A stretch of 36,586 bases of DNA from assembly GCA_031277975.1 (NCBI GenBank), contig JAITLI010000090.1, positions 1 to 36,586 of the forward strand, written 5' to 3'. The stretch's first letter is position 1. Each line of letters starts with the position of its first letter. Origin of the DNA: Azoarcus sp. GTDB lineage: Bacteria > Pseudomonadota > Gammaproteobacteria > Burkholderiales > Rhodocyclaceae. This document shows positions 3,697-29,929 of the stretch, piece by piece. Both the position numbers and the translations under genes were made by a program. The notes under the pieces are model-generated. The model was not told where the DNA came from. It saw only the letters and a list, made by a program, of their open reading frames with translations, and did not search any database.

Positions 3697-4725
3697 TCAA
3701 TGCGGCGCGTTTTCTTTTCCGGCGATGAATGGCTCCAGCGCGGCAAGTACGCGCGCCGGTCCGATGCCGGTCAGGCAGCGGGTGTGTGCGAGCGGGCAGC
3801 GGCGCGCGAAGCAGGGGGCGCAGGGCAGGCACAGCGATTCGATGATGGCGCGCTTGCCCAGGGGCGGCGTATGTTCTGGGCTGGAAGAGCCGAAGATCGC
3901 CGCCAGCGGCACATCGAGCGCGGCGGCGACGTGCATGAGGCCGGAATCGTTGCTGACGGCGGCGCGGGCGAGCGCGAGGAGGTCGACCGCATCGCCCAGC
4001 CCGGTGCGGCCGGTGAGGTCACGCACATCGGGATTGCCGGCGGCGATCGGGCGCGCGGCTTCGCTGTCCTTGTTCGACCCCAGCACCCAGATCTGGAAAC
4101 CCCGGGCGGCGAGCAGGCGGGCAAGTCCGGCGTAATGCGCGGGCGGCCATTGCTTGGCGGGGCCGTATTCGGCGCCAGGCATGAAGGCGATGACCGGACG
4201 CGCGACGTCGAGTCCGAACCGTTCGAGCAGCGCGCGCTGGTTGACCGCATCGGCAATCAGGCTCGGTACGCGGAAAGAGGGCGGCGCGGCGTCTGCGCCG
4301 CGCGGCTGGCCGAGCGCGACGAAGCGCTGCACGGTCATCGGCAGGCGGGCGCGGTCGAGCGGGCGCAAGTCGTTGAGCAGGCCATAGCGCATTTCGCCGC
4401 GAAAGCCGGTGCGCTGCGGGATGCGGGCGAAAAATGGCGCGAGCGCCGATTTGAAGGAACCGGGAAGCACGATCGCCTGGCCATAGCGCTCCCGCGCCAG
4501 TTCGCGCCCGAGCCGCCAGCGCGCCCCCAGATCGATCTGGCCGTGGCCGAGCGGCATGACCACGCCGCGCCGCACTTCCGGCATGCGGGCGAGGATCGGC
4601 AGCGACCACGCCGGAGCGAGTACGTCGATCTCGCATGCGCCAGCGTGTTTCAGGCTCATGAACAGGCTTTGCGCCATGACCATGTCCCCGACCCAGGATG
4701 GGCCCACGATCAGGATTTTGCGCAT
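3697..4725 (-). CDS. waaF: ADP-heptose:LPS heptosyltransferase II
   Basis: MRKILIVGPSWVGDMVMAQSLF, FMPGAEYGPAKQWP, NDSGLMHVAAALDVPLAAIFGSSSPEHTPP. Confidence 0.93.
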   Translation of the reverse strand: MRKILIVGPSWVGDMVMAQSLFMSLKHAGACEIDVLAPAWSLPILARMPEVRRGVVMPLGHGQIDLGARWRLGRELARERYGQAIVLPGSFKSALAPFFARIPQRTGFRGEMRYGLLNDLRPLDRARLPMTVQRFVALGQPRGADAAPPSFRVPSLIADAVNQRALLERFGLDVARPVIAFMPGAEYGPAKQWPPAHYAGLARLLAARGFQIWVLGSNKDSEAARPIAAGNPDVRDLTGRTGLGDAVDLLALARAAVSNDSGLMHVAAALDVPLAAIFGSSSPEHTPPLGKRAIIESLCLPCAPCFARRCPLAHTRCLTGIGPARVLAALEPFIAGKENAPH

Positions 4726-4737
4726 TGCCGCGTGTTT

Positions 4738-5703
4738 TCAGCGCCGGTGCAGCCAGTCGAAATAGCGCGCCACGCCCGTGGCGACGTCCATGAAGACATG
4801 TTCGCAGCCCGCCGCGCGCAGCGCCGAAAGATCGGCTTCGGTGAAACTCTGGTAGCGGCCCCTGAGATGGTCGGGAAAGGGAATGTAGTCGATGCCGCCG
4901 AAACCGCTGTCACTGCGCCAGTTGCGGTGCCAGTCGATGGCGGCGCGCGCCAGATCGTTGAAGCTCTGCGCCCGCCCGGCGCCCACGTTGAAAATACCCG
5001 AGACTTGCGGATGGTCGAGCAACCACAGATTGACGGCGACGGCATCGTCGACGTGGATGAAATCGCGGCGCTGCTCGCCCGGCCCGTAACCTTCGGAACC
5101 CTCGAAAAGCCGCAGCCGGCCGCTGTCGTGCAACTGGTTGTTGACGTGGAAAGCAACACTCGCCATCGCGCCCTTGTGCTGTTCGCGCGGGCCATAGACA
5201 TTGAAATAGCGCAGGCCCGCCACCTGGCTGCCGATGCCGTCCAGACGGGCGCGCAGGTGGCAATCGAAGAGGAACTTGGAATAGGCATACATATTGAGCG
5301 GCTGTTCGTGCTCGCGCGCTTCGCGGAAAACCGGCCCCATGCCATAGACCGAAGCCGAAGAGGCATAAATGAACGGCGTCTTGCGCGCCGTGCACCAGGC
5401 CAGCAGCGCCTTGGTGTACTCGAAATTCACTTTCATCACGAAACGCCCGTCCCACTCGGTGGTCGACGAACAGGCGCCCTCGTGGAAAACCGCTTCCACC
5501 GCGCCGAAGCGCTCGCCCTTCTCCATGCGGGCAAGGAAGTCGTCCTTGTCGAGATAATCGTGGATGTCGGCATCGGCCAGGTTCAGGCATTTGTGGCCGT
5601 CGCCCAGGTCATCGACCACGAGGATGTCGCGGATGCCCCGGGCGTTGAGGCCCTGCACGATATTGCTGCCGATGAAACCGGCGCCGCCGGTGACGATGAT
5701 CAT
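4738..5703 (-). CDS. hldD: ADP-L-glycero-D-manno-heptose 6-epimerase
   Basis: [20 protein letters not shown] Rossmann motif, YAYSKF catalytic YxxxK, heptose-epimerase signature; adjacent to waaF and the heptose kinase. Confidence 0.94.
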
Positions 5704-10761: not shown

Positions 10762-11247
10762 TTATCGTTCTTCCCGAATCTCCACGCCGCCTGTCTCCAT
10801 ATCCCATTGCGCGCGTATCACCATATCTATTGGATAAGGCTCGAACCAGTAGGTCGCTTCGATCCGGAAATGGGCGCGGTTGTACAGAGCGGCGTCATCT
10901 CCGTGGGCGATGGTGACTCTCAGCGATTTTTCCAGTATGCGCGGCTCGAAACAGGTGATGGCATTTTTGATTCCATCGGCCACGGCGCCGAGGTCGGATT
11001 CGGACAGGCGCTCGCCCGCCAATGTCGGGATGCCGAAATTGATGACCGAGCGCTTGACGCGCGGGAATTCTTCCAGGGGCAGTTGCCCTTCGAGATTCGT
11101 GCAATTGAGCAGCCATGCCAGATCGCGCAATACCGTTTTCCGGAAGGCATTGCGACTCACCGCGCCACGGCTGTCCCGCGACAGCCTGTCCAGCAGCGCC
11201 GGCATGAACAAATCGCTCGCGCGGGTTTCGTTTCCAGGGCGGCTCAT
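10762..11247 (-). CDS. tssE: T6SS baseplate protein TssE (gp25-like)
   Basis: LFMPALLDRLSRDS...VLRDLAWLLNCTNLEG...VINFGIPTLAG; start at 11247 (MSRPGNET) gives an ATGA overlap with tagF; ORF track extends to 11277. Confidence 0.88.
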   Translation of the reverse strand: MSRPGNETRASDLFMPALLDRLSRDSRGAVSRNAFRKTVLRDLAWLLNCTNLEGQLPLEEFPRVKRSVINFGIPTLAGERLSESDLGAVADGIKNAITCFEPRILEKSLRVTIAHGDDAALYNRAHFRIEATYWFEPYPIDMVIRAQWDMETGGVEIREER

Positions 11248-11936
11248 GTCGCCACGCCTCCATTCATCAACAGGCAAAACAGGTCGTCATCGGGCGGGCC
11301 GCAGTGGATGATCTGCCTCGGCGGCAGTTTGGGCGCGGGCTCCGCCCACCAGAAGCTGCGGTCGGCGCGCTCGTTGAACAGCGCTGGAAGATCCGGCCAC
11401 GAAAACCATTCCTTGCAGGGCGACGAGGCTCCGTCGCTTATTCCCAGATCGCCGAGAATACCCGCCGTGGAATTGTCTCCGCCATCGCCATGGGTTTGCC
11501 GCTTCAGGGCGCCAAGCACATGGTCGACCGGCATGCGTTCGCCGATGACGCTCCGCAAGGCCGCGTCGATCCGGTACAGCCAGCGGCTGTCCGGCGGCAA
11601 GACCTTGTCGATGCCGCGCCTGTCGAGCGAACGCAAGGCCAGCAGCGGCGAATAGCGTCCGATCTTGTCGACGCTCGGCGCCAGGCAGCCGATCAGGGCG
11701 GATTTGTCCCATATGCCGGCGTTGATGGCGAAGTGCCAGACCGGGGAGACCTGGTAGACGTCCCGCCAATCCCCGGGCCGCGAGCGGGCAAGCGCCGCCA
11801 TGCCGGATGAGATCCATTTGTGGACGGTTTCCCGCAGGGACGGGGGCAATCCCCTGCCGGCGAAATCGCCGACTGAAGGCAGCTTGCCGAACCATCCCAT
11901 GTATTTGGAAGAGGCCAAAAAACCGAACATCCCCAC
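11244..11936 (-). CDS. tagF: T6SS-associated protein TagF/ImpM
   Basis: GWFGKLPSVGDFAGRGLPPS, DVYQVSPVWHFAINAG, DKIGRYSPLLAL. Confidence 0.92.
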   Translation of the reverse strand: MGMFGFLASSKYMGWFGKLPSVGDFAGRGLPPSLRETVHKWISSGMAALARSRPGDWRDVYQVSPVWHFAINAGIWDKSALIGCLAPSVDKIGRYSPLLALRSLDRRGIDKVLPPDSRWLYRIDAALRSVIGERMPVDHVLGALKRQTHGDGGDNSTAGILGDLGISDGASSPCKEWFSWPDLPALFNERADRSFWWAEPAPKLPPRQIIHCGPPDDDLFCLLMNGGVAT

Positions 11937-11940
11937 CGGC

Positions 11941-12726
11941 TCACGCCTCCAGTGCTTTCCGCGCCAGGATGCGCGTCGTTATTTCTTCGCGTTCGCCGAC
12001 CCATACCGCCAGGGCGCTGTAGTTGTCCTGATCCTCCGCGTCCGCCCCGGCGATTTCGCGCGCCATGGCGTCCAGCCATTGCTCGGGGGAGGCCGCCTGC
12101 TGCAAGGCCGCTTCCATGACTTCTTCGCTGGCGCTCTCCCAGAAGCCGTCGGAGCACAGCAGGAAAATGTCGCCGGACAGCAGGGCGAGAGGTTTGTCGC
12201 ATACGGCGCGCTCCGGTATTTCGCCGCTGCCCACCGCCGCGTACAGCATGTTCCGCTTTCTGTTGCCGCGTAACGCGCCATTGAACATGCCGGCGTCGAT
12301 CATGGATTGCAGGACGCTGTGATCGTGCGTCAGTATGCGCGAGCGCCCGCTGCGGAACAGGTAGATGCGGCTGTCGCCAAGATGGCTCCAGTAAGCGAGC
12401 GCGCGTTCGGTATCCAGCATCAGCGCCGCGATCGTCGTGTCCATCTCGGCGTATCGCGGGTGACGTTCGCGTGCGTCGCAGAGCGCGTTGCGCGCGACCG
12501 GAATCGCCGCGTTGATCGCCGCGCCGTCGACCGCGGGCGCGGCGGAAAAGAACGACAGCACATGCCGCACGGCGGTTTCCGCCGCGAGCGCGCCGCCTTC
12601 ATGGCCGCCGGCGCCATCCGCGAGCACGAAACAGCCCAGCGTTTCGTTGGCGCAAAAGCCGATGAAATCTTCGTTGTATTTCCGGCCTCCGCACTCGCTG
12701 CGCTGCGCCACCGACAACCGCATCAT
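11941..12726 (-). CDS. pppA: PP2C-family Ser/Thr phosphatase (PppA-like) of T6SS
   Basis: KYNEDFIGF, VLADGAGGHEGG, LLCSDGFWE motifs; T6SS context. Confidence 0.88.
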   Translation of the reverse strand: MMRLSVAQRSECGGRKYNEDFIGFCANETLGCFVLADGAGGHEGGALAAETAVRHVLSFFSAAPAVDGAAINAAIPVARNALCDARERHPRYAEMDTTIAALMLDTERALAYWSHLGDSRIYLFRSGRSRILTHDHSVLQSMIDAGMFNGALRGNRKRNMLYAAVGSGEIPERAVCDKPLALLSGDIFLLCSDGFWESASEEVMEAALQQAASPEQWLDAMAREIAGADAEDQDNYSALAVWVGEREEITTRILARKALEA

Positions 12727-14756
12727 GGTTTGTGCCTCCTTTCTTCCGGCTGTATCGCCGCAATCGCTTTTTCATAGGCTTCGAGAAAGGCCGCCCCGAA
12801 GAAAGCCTGGAAGTGATCGGCGGCGCGTTGCCGCGCGTCCTGGAAATGGCGTATGTAGGCATCCCACAAGCGGGCCTTGCGCCGTCGCGGCAATACGTTG
12901 TCGAGTCCGCGCTCCGCTTCTCCCTCGTCGATCAGCCTTGGATCGAAGCGATCCAGCACATGATTCAGGGCCGATTTCGTGCCGGAGACGATGCCTATCT
13001 GATGGGCGCGCAAATCGGCGAAAGCGTTCCGCACCGCTTCGACAGGCCCCATGAAGCCGGGGAAGGGCTTGCCCAGCAGGTACAGCAGCGCGACCTTGCC
13101 ATCCGGGGAGAATTTGAGCGGGTTATTGTCCTCCGGCGCGATCACGGTGACGTTCGCCCTGACCGCCTGCTTGACAATGGCCCTGCTGGCGATCATATCC
13201 ACCGTCCCCTGCACATAGCCGCGAAACAGCTGGCCAAGCATTTTCATGAAATCCTTGTCCAGCGCGGTACGATCGGGCAATTCGACCCCCAGCCCTTCGA
13301 TGAAGGCCGCGTAGAGTTCCCGCGTGTCCGCCTCCAGGGGCGTCCGCGCGGGTGATGTTCGCGGCGGCCGCGCGGGCGGCGGCTCTTCCGCGCACACCGC
13401 GACGGGGCGGGCGTCCGGCGCCGTGGACGCGGACGATCGCAGCGCCGCGCCGGAATCCGGCCAGGCGGGCGGGCCGCCAATATCGTCATCATGGATCGGC
13501 GCCGATATGCCGTTTCCGGCCGCCGCGGTCTCCGGCGCCCTGTCCGCCTCCGGCAAAACATTGCCATCAGGAGTGCCGCCATCCAGTCCGGTGATGAGCC
13601 GGTCTATTTCGTCCATGCTGCCCGCGCCAGCCGTCTCCGGGGCGGAATCAGCCGCGGCGGCTTCGCCCGGCTCCAGTCCGTCAAGAAGCCAGTCGATGTT
13701 CCCGTCATCGAGCGCGGGAAACGGCGCGCCGCCTCCCGGCAAGACAGCGCCGCCGGAAGCGGGACCCGGCTCGGCGATGAGGCGGTCTATCTCATCATTC
13801 ATGCCGGTCACATCTGGCGGCAAGGCGGGAGAAACGGGCGCGGGGGCGATTTCCGGCGGCGGATCGCCGGATGCCGGTTTTCCTCCCGCTTCCGGCAGGT
13901 GGAACAATCCGCCAAGTTCCGGGCCATGGGTCAGATCCATGCGCGCCACGTTCAGGGCCGCGCTCGCGCTTTTGCCGCCTTGCAGGATGTCATCGAACTC
14001 GCCGCCGCCGCCGCCGAACAGCGCCTCCAGGGGATCGAGGCCGCCGTCGCGGCGCAAACTGTTGTCCGCCTGGCCGGACAGCGGGTCGCGCAGCAATTCG
14101 CGCGTCATCGCCCCGGCGTCGCCGCCGCCGTTGATGAGCTCGTCGCCCTTGCCGTCGAGACTGCCCGGATCGATGCCGCGCTCGTTGAGCATCGGCATGG
14201 GATCGCCGCGAACGATCCGGGGGTCTTCCGCGAACAGAGCGGCGAGGTTTTCGTCTTCCGCGTCCGGCAGCGCGGTTTCCGCCCGCCGCGCCGCCGGGCC
14301 GGAACCCAGCAGGGAAGCCAGAAAATCGTCGCTCACCCCGTCCGGTTGTGCCGCGCCGGCGGGCGGCGGCGGCATGGCTGGCTCGCCTTTCCGGGGCTGC
14401 GCCACGTAACGCGCTTGCAGCACATACGCACCGATAATGATCTGAGCATGGTCCCGCAACAGGCACTCCATGCCGGGGCCAAGTTCCTGGCCATCGATGA
14501 ACGCGGGGTTTTTCTTGCTGACGTTGCGGACACGGTATATTCCCCGGGATTCGAGGCTGAATTGCAGGTGTTGGCGCGACACCGTGTTCGCCGGATCGGG
14601 CAGGATGATGGCGTTGTCCTCGTTCCGGCCGATCGTGCCGCTGGTGGAAATCGTGCCCGCGACCGGCATCACGGGGGCAAGACTGTTGTAGGTCAGCGCC
14701 TGGATTTCGAGCATTTTCATTCCTTCATTCACTTCTGGAGCGGATTTTCCGCTCAT
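12723..14756 (-). CDS. T6SS FHA-domain protein (Fha/TagH-like)
   Basis: N-terminal FHA: GTIGRNEDNAIILPDPANTVSRQHLQFS...VSKKNPAFIDG; long disordered linker; C-terminal region with LFRGYVQGTVDMIASRAIVKQAVR typical of T6SS FHA proteins. Confidence 0.9.
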   Translation of the reverse strand: MSGKSAPEVNEGMKMLEIQALTYNSLAPVMPVAGTISTSGTIGRNEDNAIILPDPANTVSRQHLQFSLESRGIYRVRNVSKKNPAFIDGQELGPGMECLLRDHAQIIIGAYVLQARYVAQPRKGEPAMPPPPAGAAQPDGVSDDFLASLLGSGPAARRAETALPDAEDENLAALFAEDPRIVRGDPMPMLNERGIDPGSLDGKGDELINGGGDAGAMTRELLRDPLSGQADNSLRRDGGLDPLEALFGGGGGEFDDILQGGKSASAALNVARMDLTHGPELGGLFHLPEAGGKPASGDPPPEIAPAPVSPALPPDVTGMNDEIDRLIAEPGPASGGAVLPGGGAPFPALDDGNIDWLLDGLEPGEAAAADSAPETAGAGSMDEIDRLITGLDGGTPDGNVLPEADRAPETAAAGNGISAPIHDDDIGGPPAWPDSGAALRSSASTAPDARPVAVCAEEPPPARPPRTSPARTPLEADTRELYAAFIEGLGVELPDRTALDKDFMKMLGQLFRGYVQGTVDMIASRAIVKQAVRANVTVIAPEDNNPLKFSPDGKVALLYLLGKPFPGFMGPVEAVRNAFADLRAHQIGIVSGTKSALNHVLDRFDPRLIDEGEAERGLDNVLPRRRKARLWDAYIRHFQDARQRAADHFQAFFGAAFLEAYEKAIAAIQPEERRHKP

Positions 14757-16138
14757 TCGCCGCGCAAGGTCGCGCGCTCGCCCGCTTCGATATCGAAGTC
14801 CGCCGCAAATGGCGCACCTCGCGGAGAGATGGCCTCCAGGCTGTGGCGGCCAGGCTGGATCGGAATCAGGCGATCCACGCCCATGATGCCGTCCGGAGCA
14901 AAACGCTCGCCGTCGATGATAACAGTAGCATCGCCCATGTTCCGGATCACCAGTTGCGCTGCTTCCACGTTGATCCTGTCGAAGGTCAGGGTGGGCGTCT
15001 TGCCGCCATTGAGCGGCAAGGGAGCGGTATCCCGCGCCGCCGCGGGGGAGGCGGGTGGGGCGGCATCGCGGCCTTTTTCAACGACCGGCGCGCCGCCCCC
15101 CGATACCAGCGCGCGGACATCCCCGCCCGGGGCGCAATCGCCGCACAGGATGATGCGGTCGCCGTTTTCCGCGGGGAAATCCGCCGAAAATGACGCCCCC
15201 GTCGACGAAGCACCCGCCGGAAACGCCCGCAATTTGTGATTGCCCGCCCGGATCGGCACGCCATCGCCCCGATCCGGCCCGACCCTTTCGTCATCGATGA
15301 ACACGACGAGTTCTCCCGTCCCGCGCAGCACCAGCCGCGGCGGCGCGCCATCACCGCTTTTCTCGAACGTCAGGGCGGGTATTTTCCGCGCCTCCGTGGA
15401 TGAGCGCGGCGCGGGCGTGGCCGGCGCGGGGTCTTTTCCGGCAACCGCCGCTGCCCGAACGTTAGCGGGTACTGCCTTGAGCGGCGTTTTGCATTGCCCG
15501 CGCAGCACGACGCGGTCGCCTTTTTCCACCTTGAGATCGGCGGAAAACGGCGGTTCATGCGGGCATTCGACCCGCAAATGATGACGGCCCGAGACAATCA
15601 GCCCGATGCGCCCCGCCCGCGTCACACCGCCCAGCCCGATCCTTTCGCCATCGACCAGCACGGCGGCGTTGTCCAGCCCCCGCACCGCCACTTGCGGCAT
15701 GTCCGCGTCGATGCGCTCGAACGACAGGGCGATCGTGCCATCATCGTTGGCGCCCATCTCCCTCGGCGGCGCATGTGCCGGCGTCAGCGCGCGCGCCGCG
15801 CCGTCCCTGGCGGCGCCCATTGCCGAATGTTCGATGCCGGAGACCGCCGCATTCATCGCGCCGCCCGCCGCCGCCGCCGGATCGCGCGCGGCCTCCGCCA
15901 CGGTAACGCCCGCTTCCTTCAGTTTGCCGGGGATCGCCGCCGACACGTTCTGTTCCATGGAAGCCAGATCGCTCATCACTTTCGCCGAGGCATCATTGGC
16001 CACCGCCTCGGGCGGCGAGTCGAAAAGCGTCGTGCAGGCAACGAGAAAGAGCGCCGGGCAGCACAGCGCCGCGCCGGCAAGTCTTCCAGCCTTATCGCGC
16101 AAGACGCGAAACAGCGATTCACCGCGTTCCATCATCAT
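14753..16138 (-). CDS. Predicted lipoprotein with three tandem PEGA-like repeats
   Basis: Lipobox-like LFLVAC; repeats around VLVDGERIG, VFIDDERVG, VIIDGERFA, each followed by a GRHxLR-like and FxADxxxExGDRxxLRG segment. Confidence 0.8.
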   Translation of the reverse strand: MMMERGESLFRVLRDKAGRLAGAALCCPALFLVACTTLFDSPPEAVANDASAKVMSDLASMEQNVSAAIPGKLKEAGVTVAEAARDPAAAAGGAMNAAVSGIEHSAMGAARDGAARALTPAHAPPREMGANDDGTIALSFERIDADMPQVAVRGLDNAAVLVDGERIGLGGVTRAGRIGLIVSGRHHLRVECPHEPPFSADLKVEKGDRVVLRGQCKTPLKAVPANVRAAAVAGKDPAPATPAPRSSTEARKIPALTFEKSGDGAPPRLVLRGTGELVVFIDDERVGPDRGDGVPIRAGNHKLRAFPAGASSTGASFSADFPAENGDRIILCGDCAPGGDVRALVSGGGAPVVEKGRDAAPPASPAAARDTAPLPLNGGKTPTLTFDRINVEAAQLVIRNMGDATVIIDGERFAPDGIMGVDRLIPIQPGRHSLEAISPRGAPFAADFDIEAGERATLRGE

Positions 16139-17316
16139 CTCCCCCGCGCACCCGATGGCGTAGGTGCGGCGGCGCCAGAATTCGTGTTTTCCCCTCCGGA
16201 AAACGCTATGAAAAACACCGTGACGAACAGCAGCAAGACCAAGAGCAGGATACTCCAGCGCATGACGGCATCGTTATCCCGCGATCCTTTCCCCGTCCCC
16301 GCGCCGCGCGCCTTCCGGATGTCCCCGCGCGGCGTGACAACAACGGAAGGCGCGCGCGCGGGCGTCAGGACAGGCGGTGCGGTTTCCTCCGCGGCATCCA
16401 GCAATGCCTGCCTGAACGCTTCGACGGTGCGCGGACGCTCCTGCGGCCGCACCGCCATCCCCGCGTCGATGATTTTCAACACCCCGGCGGGCAGCGCCGG
16501 CGAGGCGAACGCCGCCGCCAGCGGCTTGACCGTGTCCCGCATGATCCTGGCCACCGAGATACCCGGCATCGCGCCGCTGACGAGAAAATAGGCCACCACG
16601 GAAAGCGCGTAAATGTCCGTCCATGGCCCCAGTCCCGGCGCATTGTCGCTGCCGCCGCCGCTGCCGTATTGCTCGATCGGCGCGAAGCCCGGCTTGAGGA
16701 TGATCGTGGTCGGGTCCTCGCCCCCCAGTTCCGTGTGGCGCGCGGCACCGAAATCGAGCAATACCGGCATCTTGTTTTCCAGCATCAGGATGTTGTCGGA
16801 CGAGATGTCGAGGTGATAGCAATCCACCGAATGGATCTGCGCCAGCCCCCCCAGTACGGGGATCAGGATGGCGAGCAGATCTTCCGAACTTCTCGCCCGA
16901 TAGCCGGCGCGCACCATGTCGCGCAAGGTCGTGCCGCGGTAGTAGGGCATGACCATGTAGGCGGTGCCGTTGGCTTCGAGAAACCGCAGCACCGAGACCA
17001 GCGCGGGATGGCGGAAACGCGCCAGGATGTGCGCCTCGTTGACGAAACGCCGCATCCCCTTGACGAACAATTCGCGCCTGGCGGCAACCCTGACCTCCAC
17101 CTGCGCGCCACCGCCGCGCGCCGCGAGGCTGGCCGGCAGGTATTCCTTGATCGCCACTTCCCGGTCGAGGAAGGTGTCGTGCGCCAGATACACGATCCCG
17201 AAGCCGCCCTCGCCGATGACCGAACGAATGACGAATTCCTGCAAGCGCGTCCCGGCGGGCAGGGCGCTCATCGGAGCGGGCATTTCCGCCCCCCGCGCAT
17301 CAGCCGTATCGTTCAT
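16135..17316 (-). CDS. ppkA: T6SS-associated Ser/Thr protein kinase with C-terminal transmembrane segment (PpkA/Stk1-like)
   Basis: IGEGGFGIVYLAHD, VAIKEYLP, HLDISSDNIL, LLDFGAAR; TM WSILLLVLLLFVTVFFIAF. Confidence 0.88.
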   Translation of the reverse strand: MNDTADARGAEMPAPMSALPAGTRLQEFVIRSVIGEGGFGIVYLAHDTFLDREVAIKEYLPASLAARGGGAQVEVRVAARRELFVKGMRRFVNEAHILARFRHPALVSVLRFLEANGTAYMVMPYYRGTTLRDMVRAGYRARSSEDLLAILIPVLGGLAQIHSVDCYHLDISSDNILMLENKMPVLLDFGAARHTELGGEDPTTIILKPGFAPIEQYGSGGGSDNAPGLGPWTDIYALSVVAYFLVSGAMPGISVARIMRDTVKPLAAAFASPALPAGVLKIIDAGMAVRPQERPRTVEAFRQALLDAAEETAPPVLTPARAPSVVVTPRGDIRKARGAGTGKGSRDNDAVMRWSILLLVLLLFVTVFFIAFSGGENTNSGAAAPTPSGARGR

Positions 17317-26000: not shown

Positions 26001-26644
26001 CATTCCGCCTTGTCCGCGTCCACGTCGGACTCGTGCGTGGTGTAACGCCCGGCGGTATCGAGGAACACCGCCTCGTTGGTAAACCACCAGTCGCAATTGC
26101 GCGTGCCGCCCGCACCGCGAATCGCCGCCGCGCCGACTTGCCTGGCCAGGGGGAACGACAGCCCGGAGTTGAGCAGGGCGGTCGTCTTGCCGACGCCCGG
26201 CGCGCCGATGATGACATACCAGGGTAGTTCGTACACATATCGGCCATGCCGCAGGATGCGCCCCCAGAGCGTGGGCTTCGTTTTCTCGAAACGCGCCTTG
26301 CGCAGCACATCGAGCGCGTCGGCGAAGCGGTCGCGCAATATGCCGACCTGTCCCGCCTCTTCGTCCGGGCGCGCACTCAGGGTCGCGCGCAACATCCCGG
26401 CGATGCGCTCGTTCATGCGCCCCGCGCGCCAGCGCGCCAGCAGGAAACGCAGCAGGAAATACGCCAGGATCAGGCCGATCAGCCAGCAACGGGCCTCGAC
26501 GGAGGCGAGCGGACGCGCATCGCCGAACGCGAACAGCGGCCCAGCATACCAGATGAGCAGAAAGACCGCGATGACGCCAATCGTCACCCAGAGCGCGCGG
26601 GAGAGCAGCCAGCCGAAAATGCGCCGCAGCAACGACGAGATCAT
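23081..26644 (-). CDS. tssM: T6SS membrane complex protein TssM (IcmF-like)
   Basis: N-terminal TM segments, Walker A GAPGVGKTTALLNSGLSFPL, GGTRNCDWWFTNEAVFLDTAGRY, C-terminal IcmF domain. Confidence 0.95.
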   Translation of the reverse strand: MISSLLRRIFGWLLSRALWVTIGVIAVFLLIWYAGPLFAFGDARPLASVEARCWLIGLILAYFLLRFLLARWRAGRMNERIAGMLRATLSARPDEEAGQVGILRDRFADALDVLRKARFEKTKPTLWGRILRHGRYVYELPWYVIIGAPGVGKTTALLNSGLSFPLARQVGAAAIRGAGGTRNCDWWFTNEAVFLDTAGRYTTHESDVDADKAEWLGFLSLLKKNRSRQPINGVLVMLSVTELLGANEEGRQSSAAILRRRLDELRNDLGMSFPVYLLVNKCDLLLGFDEYFSPLDRSGREQVWGFTLPFSPTGTFEFDPARFAVELDLLRARIFAGLVDTLQGEPDLSRRELIYAFPQQFSALTLIIREIAADLLAASRFSASPLLRGVYFTSATQEGTPFDRIVHALGQGFPVQSPRKAAAGEGKAYFLQELLSRVVFAEAHLAGSDRRAERRSRAWHIGVYALCVGALCGATLAWIGSDLNNQTHIEEVGQKAAVFKDELGNLPERNNISINALLPILGMAEALPDSTFFKVDDPRIPWRFGLYQGKKLKAGARPLYEYLLERRFAPTIKANLEQWLRSVGVDDLEFAYELLKAYLMMHEPEHFDEREFASLVEALWGYDFPEGALADERQALARHIAALVGLNAEKSAAAPLSATAVDASLVQATRTRLTQYTTSQRIYSRLKRLLQNNQLPEFSVASEVGVQAAQALRLRSGRSLTHGVPSLYTYRGYHELFKVELDRVLNFVGKDESWVLGVIRNERDALQDVASGKLMLDVKRHYVADYISYWEKYIDDVTIIEPRSLREAAQIVDILSGIDSPLRRFMTGAARETTLLKETAPANTQQSMFNRARQTATATTNDLRQIVPPGTVGALTPKEIPEMAVNNRFAALRSFVNGSGGDGANSPMLQAVKRLEELHGLLALAINRADNKLPMPETTQITQLLTGAESMPEPFRRILKTVAQNSDKSIRAAGRNAVNTALVTEVTGFCEKVITGRYPFSRASTIDVTAADFADMFAPGGRMERFRQEQGEGTSLPADFARGRVIRDVFFRNGNTAQITFTVRPLVMDSNILTMTMNIGGQTVRYDHGPQVPTSVTWPAAGGDQVRVTLTPPVPNGANSISASGLWGLHRLFDKHGKISPGATQDVFNVRFDVGGRTATFEIRPTSVQNPFNLPELNQFKCPRGMP

Positions 26645-27960
26645 GGCTTGCCTCCCGTGGCGCCGAGCTGGCGCTGGATGGCCTCCGCCGACAGCAGCAC
26701 GGTGATTTCGACGCGGCGGTTGCGGGCGCGGCCTTCCCGCGTGTCATTGGGCGCGATCGGCTCGGCCTCGCCGCGCCCTTCGGCGCGGACGCGTCCTGCC
26801 CGCCCCAGATGGCTGTCGAGCAATCCTTTGACCGCTTCGGCGCGCGCCTGCGACAACTCCCAGTTGGAAGGAAAGCGCAGGCTGCGCATGGGCACGTTGT
26901 CGGTATAGCCCGACACGAGCACATTGCCGTCGATTTCCCCGAGCGCGTCGGCGATACGCTTGAGCACCGACAGGTAGCGGAAACGGATATCGGCGCTTCC
27001 GGACTCGAACAACCCGTCCCCGGTCAGGGTCACGATGCAGCGATTGGCTTTTTCCGTGACTTCCACCAGCCCTTCGCGGATCTCCTGTTCGAGAAAGCGG
27101 CGCAGCATCTCCGCCGTGCCCGTCGGTCTCTGTACGACCGCCACCGCTGGCTCCGGAATCTTCATCGCCGCCAATTGCGCATAGACGATATCGGAGCGGC
27201 TCCCTAGGGAAAACAGGAACCACAGATAAATCCCGAGGCCGATCAGCCCGCACAGCACCGCGACGACCCAGGGCGGCACCAGCCGCCAAGCCGGCGGCGT
27301 CGAACTCACTCCCTGCCAGTGCGGCGCGAGACGGGTTTCGTAGCCGCCCTTGACCTTGTCGAGAATCGAGGCGATCCGCCGCTTGAGGATTTCAAGCTGC
27401 GAATAGCCATTGTCGATGATCCTGAAACGCCCTTCAAAACCCAGCGCGTTGCAGTAATACAACAATTCAATGAGATTCTTGTGACGCTCGGGATTCTGCG
27501 CTAGCCGGGCCAGCAGCAAATAATATTTCTCGCCGCCCCAGGCTTCATTGTGAAACGAAACCAGCAGGCTTTGTTTCGCCCAGGCGCCCTTGCTTCCCCA
27601 CGGCGCATGCGCCGCCGCTTCGTCGAGGACAGTGCACAAGCAATAACGCGCGCCGATCAATTCGTCGCGTGCTACGCCCACTGATTGGGCGCGCTGTTCG
27701 AAGGCGCGTACTTCCATGACCAACTGCCGCCGCAATTTCGCCAGATCGTCGAGTTGAGGCATGCTCCGTATCTGCGCCACCATGTCGAGCAAACGGCCGG
27801 CAGCCCACACCAGTGGATTCACGCCGTTGGCGCTGTCGTACTCCAGCTCGATGCCGCCGACGGCCCGCGGTCCCGGCGCGGTCCCGGCGCGTGCGCCCTC
27901 CCGCATCCTCAGCACCGTGTCCGCTTCCATCGCGTCCGTCATTTGCGGATCGCCCAGCAT
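26641..27960 (-). CDS. tssL: T6SS TssL (DotU-like) with C-terminal OmpA/peptidoglycan-binding domain
   Basis: DotU region LLARLAQNPERHKNLIELLYYCNALGFEGRFRI; single TM; VLVSGYTDNVPMRSLRFPSNWELSQARAEAV...GEAEPIAPNDTREGRARNRRVEI. Confidence 0.94.
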   Translation of the reverse strand: MLGDPQMTDAMEADTVLRMREGARAGTAPGPRAVGGIELEYDSANGVNPLVWAAGRLLDMVAQIRSMPQLDDLAKLRRQLVMEVRAFEQRAQSVGVARDELIGARYCLCTVLDEAAAHAPWGSKGAWAKQSLLVSFHNEAWGGEKYYLLLARLAQNPERHKNLIELLYYCNALGFEGRFRIIDNGYSQLEILKRRIASILDKVKGGYETRLAPHWQGVSSTPPAWRLVPPWVVAVLCGLIGLGIYLWFLFSLGSRSDIVYAQLAAMKIPEPAVAVVQRPTGTAEMLRRFLEQEIREGLVEVTEKANRCIVTLTGDGLFESGSADIRFRYLSVLKRIADALGEIDGNVLVSGYTDNVPMRSLRFPSNWELSQARAEAVKGLLDSHLGRAGRVRAEGRGEAEPIAPNDTREGRARNRRVEITVLLSAEAIQRQLGATGGKP

Positions 27961-29377: not shown

Positions 29378-29929
29378 TCATTTCCCCGGCTGTTCCTCGT
29401 ATATCGCCACGCCGCGCTCGCCCAGCACCACATACAGGCGTTTGGTCGGCGACTCGGAGTTGCTCCACACCCGCCCGGCAAGATAAGGCGCGGGCAGCGG
29501 CGCCACCGCCCGCCATGTACTGCCGGTCAGGTCCCGATACCCGGCGACCACCCCCAGGAACCGGCTGTTGAGCGCGGCGCGCCTGCGCACCATCCTGGTT
29601 TCGCCCGGCAGCAGGTTGTATTCATCATTGGTGAGCATTTCCTCGCCCAATGGCACGCCCCCTTGCCCCATCAGCACGAAATAGTCGGCGGACAGGAATT
29701 GCGTGTCATTGGAAAGCTCGAACAGGCGCACCACGATTGGTGAGGGCCTGCCCGCCGCGGTCGGATTGACGCGTTCCGCCGCGCCCATGGTGATTTCCAA
29801 GGGAACCGGGAGTTCCGGCCTTTCTACCGGCCTGAAAATCTCCCACAGCGCGCATCCCGGAAGCGCTATGCCAACAAGAATAATACCGAAAAGATGAAAA
29901 GCCCTTGCACGACCAAGCCCCGCATACAC
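29378..29929 (-). CDS. tssJ: T6SS outer-membrane lipoprotein TssJ (GTG start)
   Basis: Lipobox IALPGC; PSPIVVRLFELSNDTQFLSADYFVL; LLPGETRMVRR. Confidence 0.9.
   Translation of the reverse strand: MYAGLGRARAFHLFGIILVGIALPGCALWEIFRPVERPELPVPLEITMGAAERVNPTAAGRPSPIVVRLFELSNDTQFLSADYFVLMGQGGVPLGEEMLTNDEYNLLPGETRMVRRRAALNSRFLGVVAGYRDLTGSTWRAVAPLPAPYLAGRVWSNSESPTKRLYVVLGERGVAIYEEQPGK

What the first reader, a model, noticed from the sequence alone, without database searches (positions are those of the whole stretch)
14753..16138. Lipoprotein with three tandem PEGA-like repeats embedded in the T6SS kinase/FHA/phosphatase module
Seen: a 461-aa ORF with a lipobox-like LFLVAC and three ~80-aa repeats (aa ~136-216, 254-335, 382-461; roughly 15491-15733, 15134-15379, 14756-14995). 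Each has a V-x-(V/I)-D-(G/D)-E-R core, then a G-x-H-x-L segment, then F-x-AD...G(D/E)R...L. Repeats 1 and 2 end in GQC/GDC and have an extra Cys nearby. Knowledge: in H1-type T6SS, threonine phosphorylation by PpkA, acting through Fha and reversed by PppA, is controlled by envelope sensors such as the lipoprotein TagQ with TagRST. No TagRST-like genes are visible here. Inference: this lipoprotein may be the envelope sensor for the kinase, or an accessory to the membrane complex, in place of TagQRST.
Basis: partly seen in the sequence, partly recalled or inferred. Interest (0 to 1): 0.75.

Follow-up and report, generated by a model that had tools for sequence, protein, structure and literature searches.

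The report
Lipoprotein partner of T6SS kinase
A termite-gut bacterium's toxin-injection machine carries, between its on-switch kinase and the kinase's target, an outer-membrane-type lipoprotein made of three copies of the domain that related kinases carry on themselves; in two relatives it is fused to the kinase, so it is probably the kinase's missing outside part.

Summary
In detail: a 461-aa lipoprotein with three real ~80-aa repeats lies between a PpkA-type kinase and Fha in a T6SS cluster. The host is probably a termite-gut Azoarcus-like betaproteobacterium. Pfam and NCBIfam do not recognise the protein. Profile comparison links its repeats to the PEGA domain at the periplasmic end of T6SS kinases. 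AlphaFold gives a confident beta-sandwich whose nearest solved structure is the PpkA domain of the RtkS-PpkA complex (9k1u), although that match is weak (E 0.025).

In this genus the kinase has lost its own periplasmic PEGA domain, and the lipoprotein (one repeat in most species, three here) sits next to it. In two lineages, shown independent by an AU test (p 3e-8), kinase and lipoprotein are one gene, the kinase's membrane helix doubling as the lipobox helix. I infer that the lipoprotein is the kinase's detached extracytoplasmic module, switching or positioning it, a job that TagQ/TagR, RtkS and TssW do elsewhere.

TssW of Acidovorax citrulli occupies the same gene slot; its sequence could not be reached, so homology is untested. 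The family is lineage-restricted.

The parts
14753..16138 (-). Lipoprotein gene, 461 aa, three PEGA-like domains
   Evidence: no Pfam/NCBIfam family; purifying selection
16034..16138 (-). Signal peptide and lipobox LVAC, Cys35; +2/+3 Thr-Thr (no Asp at +2, so outer-membrane sorting predicted)
   Evidence: sequence; Cys invariant in relatives
16010..16036 (-). Conserved motif after the lipid-anchored Cys, C-x-T-L-F-D-S-P-P
   Evidence: also in the outgroup lipoproteins of G174 and G208
15491..15733 (-). PEGA-like repeat 1 (aa 136-216), the copy shared by the whole genus; conserved Cys192/Cys216
   Evidence: AlphaFold pLDDT 91.9
15134..15379 (-). PEGA-like repeat 2 (aa 254-335)
14756..14995 (-). 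PEGA-like repeat 3 (aa 382-461)
16135..17316 (-). PpkA-type Ser/Thr kinase, 393 aa, one C-terminal TM (about 16198-16260) and only a short tail after it; no PEGA domain
   Evidence: Pkinase 2.1e-24
12723..14756 (-). Fha / TagH
   Evidence: TIGR03354, 1.4e-59
11941..12726 (-). PP2C phosphatase, PppA-type
11244..11936 (-). TagF
   Evidence: PF09867
17350..20124 (-). ClpV / TssH
   Evidence: TIGR03345
23081..26644 (-). TssM
26641..27960 (-). TssL, long form with OmpA domain
29378..29929 (-). TssJ: the standard outer-membrane lipoprotein is present, so this protein does not replace it
   Evidence: PF12790, 1.2e-28

Best explanation
The protein is the detached extracytoplasmic part of the T6SS kinase. 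Shown by computation: it is a lipoprotein with three PEGA-like beta-sandwich domains, encoded between kinase and Fha in this genus; the kinase here has no periplasmic domain of its own, while related kinases end in a PEGA domain; kinase and lipoprotein have fused twice independently. Inferred: anchored in the outer membrane, it reaches through the periplasm and contacts the kinase's membrane helix or short tail, and probably TssM/TssJ. That contact stabilises, switches or places the kinase, which then phosphorylates Fha, overcomes TagF and starts T6SS assembly, with PppA reversing it. Tripling of the domain in this species would lengthen the reach or multiply binding sites.
For: Conserved kinase-lipoprotein(or fusion)-Fha order in the genus loci and in another genus of the same family with the same cluster order TssM-F-G-ClpV-kinase-lipoprotein-Fha-PP2C-TagF (G174, L199). 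Fusions in G009 and G001 with one shared helix (..FVVLLMFAATVILSGC-KSLFDSPP..LVCVMAFFLALSGC-STLFDSPP), rejected as one clade at p-AU 3.1e-8. PEGA relation: hhalign 96.7% and 89-94% in strict versions, shuffles at most 4.2%. Confident model (pLDDT 91.9, pTM 0.82); best PDB matches are the two PpkA chains of the RtkS-PpkA complex 9k1u, prob 1.00, TM 0.56/0.51. Kinases of G174, G208 and the genus's second-type kinases carry PEGA. Domain known to matter: RtkS binds the periplasmic domain of Serratia PpkA and is needed for its stability and Fha phosphorylation (PMC6082577). BH72, an Azoarcus regulated by PpkA/PppA/TagF, has no TagQRST and its input is unknown (PMC6423157).
Against: No experiment. 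Foldseek E-value is weak (0.025) with no match below 0.001, and direct profile comparison with the enterobacterial PpkA tail is not significant (9.6%, two-sequence profile). G174 and G208 have PEGA on both kinase and lipoprotein, so transfer of the domain from kinase to lipoprotein is not a clean swap; the G208 TPR+PEGA lipoprotein is an equally good source. Fusion and co-linearity imply joint function but not its direction. The kinase tail after the TM is short, so the contact site is unclear.
Confidence: 0.6

Rival explanations
1. It is a positioning anchor like TssW: an outer-membrane protein that holds the membrane complex and kinase at non-polar sites, without carrying a signal.
For: TssW is encoded between ppkA and fha, is in the outer membrane, binds TssM, PpkA and weakly TssJ; its loss lowers Hcp secretion and makes T6SS polar (PMC12607579). 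The window protein has the same slot and a predicted outer-membrane lipobox.
Against: In the two fusions the domain is tied to the inner-membrane kinase, which an outer-membrane anchor would not tolerate unless the fusion is cleaved. The usual Burkholderiales gene in this slot is a TPR lipoprotein, unrelated to this one beyond the signal peptide. A. citrulli TssW itself could not be compared.
Confidence: 0.25
2. It is a general envelope or peptidoglycan accessory of the T6SS (TagV-like), with no direct role at the kinase.
For: Several T6SS carry accessory outer-membrane lipoproteins; TagV is proposed to bind peptidoglycan and acts apart from TssJ (PMC7614798). TssJ is present here, so this protein is not needed for the TssJ role.
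Against: Fusion to the kinase twice, and strict placement between kinase and Fha, argue for a kinase role.
Confidence: 0.1
3. The fusions mislead: the lipoprotein is a passenger co-transcribed with the kinase, and fusions arise because neighbouring same-strand overlapping genes fuse easily.
For: Genes overlap by a few bases, so in-frame fusion is mechanistically easy.
Against: Both fusions removed one of the two hydrophobic segments and kept both folded parts and the lipobox, and the lipoprotein is under purifying selection.
Confidence: 0.05

Closest known systems
Periplasmic PEGA-type domain of PpkA, as in the RtkS-PpkA crystal structure (PDB 9k1u)
   Same: Nearest solved fold to the repeat; PEGA domains of related kinases match the repeat profile.
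   Different: There the domain is part of the kinase; here it is on a separate lipoprotein, in three copies, and misses the Pfam PEGA cut-off.
TssW of Acidovorax citrulli (PMC12607579)
   Same: Gene between ppkA and fha; signal sequence; predicted outer-membrane location; system without TagQRST.
   Different: The common gene in that slot in Burkholderiales is a TPR lipoprotein that is not homologous to this one.
RtkS of Serratia marcescens (PMC6082577)
   Same: Envelope protein acting at the kinase's periplasmic side in a system without TagQRST; RtkS needs DsbA, and the conserved Cys pair here may also form a disulphide.
   Different: No sequence similarity; gene lies downstream of fha-pppA; RtkS binds a PEGA-type domain, whereas this protein is made of such domains.
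TagQ/TagR/TagST of Pseudomonas aeruginosa
   Same: Outer-membrane lipoprotein input to the threonine phosphorylation pathway.
   Different: No TagRST-like gene was recognised in the window. TagQ sequence was not compared.
TPR+PEGA lipoprotein of G208 (L200:11787-12665) in the same cluster position
   Same: Post-Cys motif LFDS and C-terminal PEGA with PFAAD..GE (85%, E 6e-6); same gene order.
   Different: Has a TPR segment and one PEGA copy, and a second TPR lipoprotein next to it.

Membership tests
PEGA domain (PF08308) | Match to the Pfam model above its gathering score | tested here: not met
   No PEGA hit for the window protein at E up to 1; single-repeat relative also none
PEGA domain (PF08308) | Profile similarity to accepted PEGA domains | tested here: met
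   hhalign 96.7%, E 3.9e-10; 89-94% without bridging rows, controls at most 4.2%
PEGA domain (PF08308) | Small beta-sandwich fold | tested here: met
   AlphaFold pLDDT 91.9, seven strands; top PDB matches are PpkA PEGA-type chains, TM 0.56/0.51, but E 0.025 only
TssW | Encoded between ppkA and fha | tested here: met
   defining statement in PMC12607579
TssW | Sequence homology to A. citrulli TssW | not tested
The TPR protein that usually fills this slot is not homologous
TssW | Outer-membrane location, binding to TssM and PpkA, non-polar positioning | not testable with these tools
   Lipobox with no Asp at +2 is only compatible with outer-membrane location
RtkS | Sequence homology to RtkS | tested here: not met
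   hhalign 0.1% against two RtkS homologues, one of which was checked to match PDB 9k0l/9k1u
RtkS | Periplasmic protein binding the PpkA periplasmic domain | not testable with these tools
   The kinase here lacks that domain
TssJ | T6SS-SciN model match | tested here: not met
   No hit for this protein; a separate TssJ is present
TagQ (TagQRST) | Homology to TagQ and linkage to tagRST | tested here: inconclusive
   No TagRST-like gene recognised in the window; TagQ sequence not compared; one unlinked FGE-sulfatase lipoprotein elsewhere in the genome

The most novel reading that the evidence does not exclude
The extracytoplasmic PEGA domain of a Ser/Thr kinase has been moved off the kinase onto an outer-membrane lipoprotein and works in trans. 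In the two fused lineages the kept lipobox lets signal peptidase II cut the fusion, so one polyprotein yields both the membrane kinase and its lipoprotein partner.
Probability: 0.2. Interest if true: 0.8.

Novelty: new variant of a known kind. Interest (0 to 1): 0.6.

Why it matters
How the threonine phosphorylation pathway of T6SS is switched in bacteria without TagQRST is an open question, stated for Azoarcus olearius BH72 (PMC6423157) and partly answered elsewhere by RtkS and TssW. This family gives a direct, testable candidate in the Azoarcus-like lineage. Its natural series (single-repeat lipoprotein, triple-repeat lipoprotein, kinase fusion, kinase with its own PEGA) is a ready-made set of variants for asking what the periplasmic domain does. 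The lipobox inside a kinase's membrane helix is unusual in itself and easy to test.

Tried and rejected
TssJ replacement: rejected, TssJ is present. RtkS homologue: rejected. TPR lipoprotein homologue: rejected, only the signal peptides align. Frameshift or assembly error as the source of the fusions: judged unlikely, because each fusion lacks one whole hydrophobic segment and a frameshift would keep both, and the two are not sisters. An internal ATG 29 codons before the lipobox Cys in the G009 fusion could in principle also start a free lipoprotein; not excluded. Full-length AlphaFold was poor (pLDDT 53.9), though the strand pattern repeats three times. The phmmer PDB hits to an epimerase are chance. 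The NCBIfam hit of the kinase tail to 'lipo-invert' (E 0.07) did not recur in four related kinase or kinase-fusion proteins and was dropped.

Full report
What is there. The window holds a T6SS cluster: TssK, TssL, TssM, TssF, TssG, ClpV, kinase, the lipoprotein, Fha, PP2C and TagF on the minus strand, with TssJ upstream and TssA, TssB, TssC on the plus strand. The lipoprotein ORF at 14753-16138 overlaps its neighbours by a few bases and is real. Its three repeats are well above chance, and against its nearest relative it is under purifying selection, most clearly in repeats 2 and 3. The protein has no Pfam or NCBIfam family and no meaningful PDB sequence match.

Who has it. The genome is 2.7 Mb in 204 contigs. 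A scan of named species genomes finds relatives only in MAGs labelled Azoarcus sp. or Betaproteobacteria, all 12 loci; that these are termite-gut MAGs is my reading of the isolate names. In the same genus 13 of 22 genomes, the window's own included, have a match; an order-wide sample of 400 genomes gave nothing convincing outside. In the genus loci with enough flank the order is ClpV-kinase-lipoprotein-Fha-PP2C. Most species have one repeat; only the window and its close relative G004 have three. One genome of good assembly quality from another genus of the family, G174, has a related lipoprotein in exactly the same cluster order.

What the repeat is. Direct Pfam search does not call PEGA. Comparing a profile of the repeats with PEGA-type domains taken from the C-termini of T6SS kinases and of kinase-linked TPR proteins of the same order gives 96.7% probability over 56 columns. 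Leaving out the sequences that could act as bridges it is 94.4%, 92.4% for the three window repeats alone and 89.4% for the genus without the window, against at most 4.2% for 12 column-shuffled controls. AlphaFold on 16 repeat sequences gives pLDDT 91.9, pTM 0.82, all beta. The best two Foldseek matches in the PDB are the PpkA chains of 'crystal structure of RtkS and PpkA complex', 9k1u, with TM 0.56 and 0.51; the E-values (0.025, 0.035) are weak, so the fold match alone would not carry the claim.

The kinase. Related T6SS kinases carry a PEGA domain after their TM helix: G174 and G208 in the family, several families of the order, the second-type kinase of G008 (25.8 bits, above the Pfam cut-off) and the second kinase of the window's own genome (27.6 bits). 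The kinase of the window and the other separate kinases of the genus have only a short tail after the TM. So in this genus the kinase next to the lipoprotein lacks the PEGA domain and the lipoprotein has it. This is not a strict either/or, because G174 and G208 have PEGA on both. The lipoprotein's domain is at least as close to that of the TPR+PEGA lipoprotein in the same slot of G208 (85%, E 6e-6, shared PF-A-AD pattern and shared LFDS after the Cys) as to the kinase's.

The fusions. In G009 and G001 kinase and lipoprotein are one ORF. Only one hydrophobic segment is left; its first part looks like the kinase's TM, its end is the lipobox LSGC followed by the family's LFDSPP. A tree of kinase plus ClpV puts the two apart, and holding them together is rejected, p-AU 3.1e-8. 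The simplest reading is two separate fusions, which is good evidence that the two proteins work together. The kept lipobox suggests that the fusion may still be lipidated, perhaps cut; that is speculation.

How it probably works. Established elsewhere: PpkA phosphorylates Fha, PppA reverses it, TagF represses, and Fha phosphorylation overcomes TagF; the input differs by species: TagQRST in P. aeruginosa, RtkS on the PpkA periplasmic domain in Serratia (PMC6082577), TssW between ppkA and fha in A. citrulli (PMC12607579). In BH72 the pathway is active without TagQRST (PMC6423157). I infer that the window's lipoprotein is the periplasmic input module of this kinase, anchored at the outer membrane. 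Whether it senses, stabilises or positions the kinase cannot be told from sequence.

Comparison. It is not RtkS, not TssJ and not the TPR lipoprotein that usually lies between kinase and Fha in the order. TssW has the same slot; I could not obtain its sequence, so membership is untested. On gene order alone I suspect TssW is the TPR type, but that is a guess. I rate it a new variant of a known kind: an envelope partner of the T6SS kinase.

Noticed in passing
L149:4912-6546 (G009) and L152:4906-6759 (G001): Kinase and lipoprotein fused in one ORF, with a lipobox (LSGC) inside the kinase's single membrane helix; possible signal peptidase II substrate. In G009 an internal ATG lies 29 codons before the Cys.
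   Followed up: partly
window 16135-17316 and kinases of the same genus: The catalytic loop reads HLD instead of HRD in nearly all genus kinases looked at (L082 keeps HRD; the second kinase of the own genome, L122, is also HLD), while outgroup kinases have HRD. They would be non-RD kinases, with possibly different activation.
   Followed up: partly
L122 (G000:C190:1-3034): The same genome has a second T6SS-type kinase with a true PEGA domain, next to an Hcp gene and a TPR lipoprotein, on a short contig.
   Followed up: partly
L069:1-4462 (G008): A second kinase(PEGA)-Fha-PP2C module lies back to back with the main T6SS; its kinase is split into two overlapping frames.
   Followed up: no
L132:5779-7058, L200:11316-12665: TPR+PEGA proteins and TPR-only lipoproteins between kinase and Fha are widespread in the order; the TPR-only type has no Pfam family.
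   Followed up: partly
L291 (G000:C124), about 4132-4800 minus strand: A solitary lipoprotein with an FGE-sulfatase domain, the domain I recall for TagR, outside any T6SS context.
   Followed up: partly
L016:149-391 (G015:C142): A short ORF 60% identical to the first 38 residues of the window lipoprotein on a separate small contig; a possible partial second copy.
   Followed up: no
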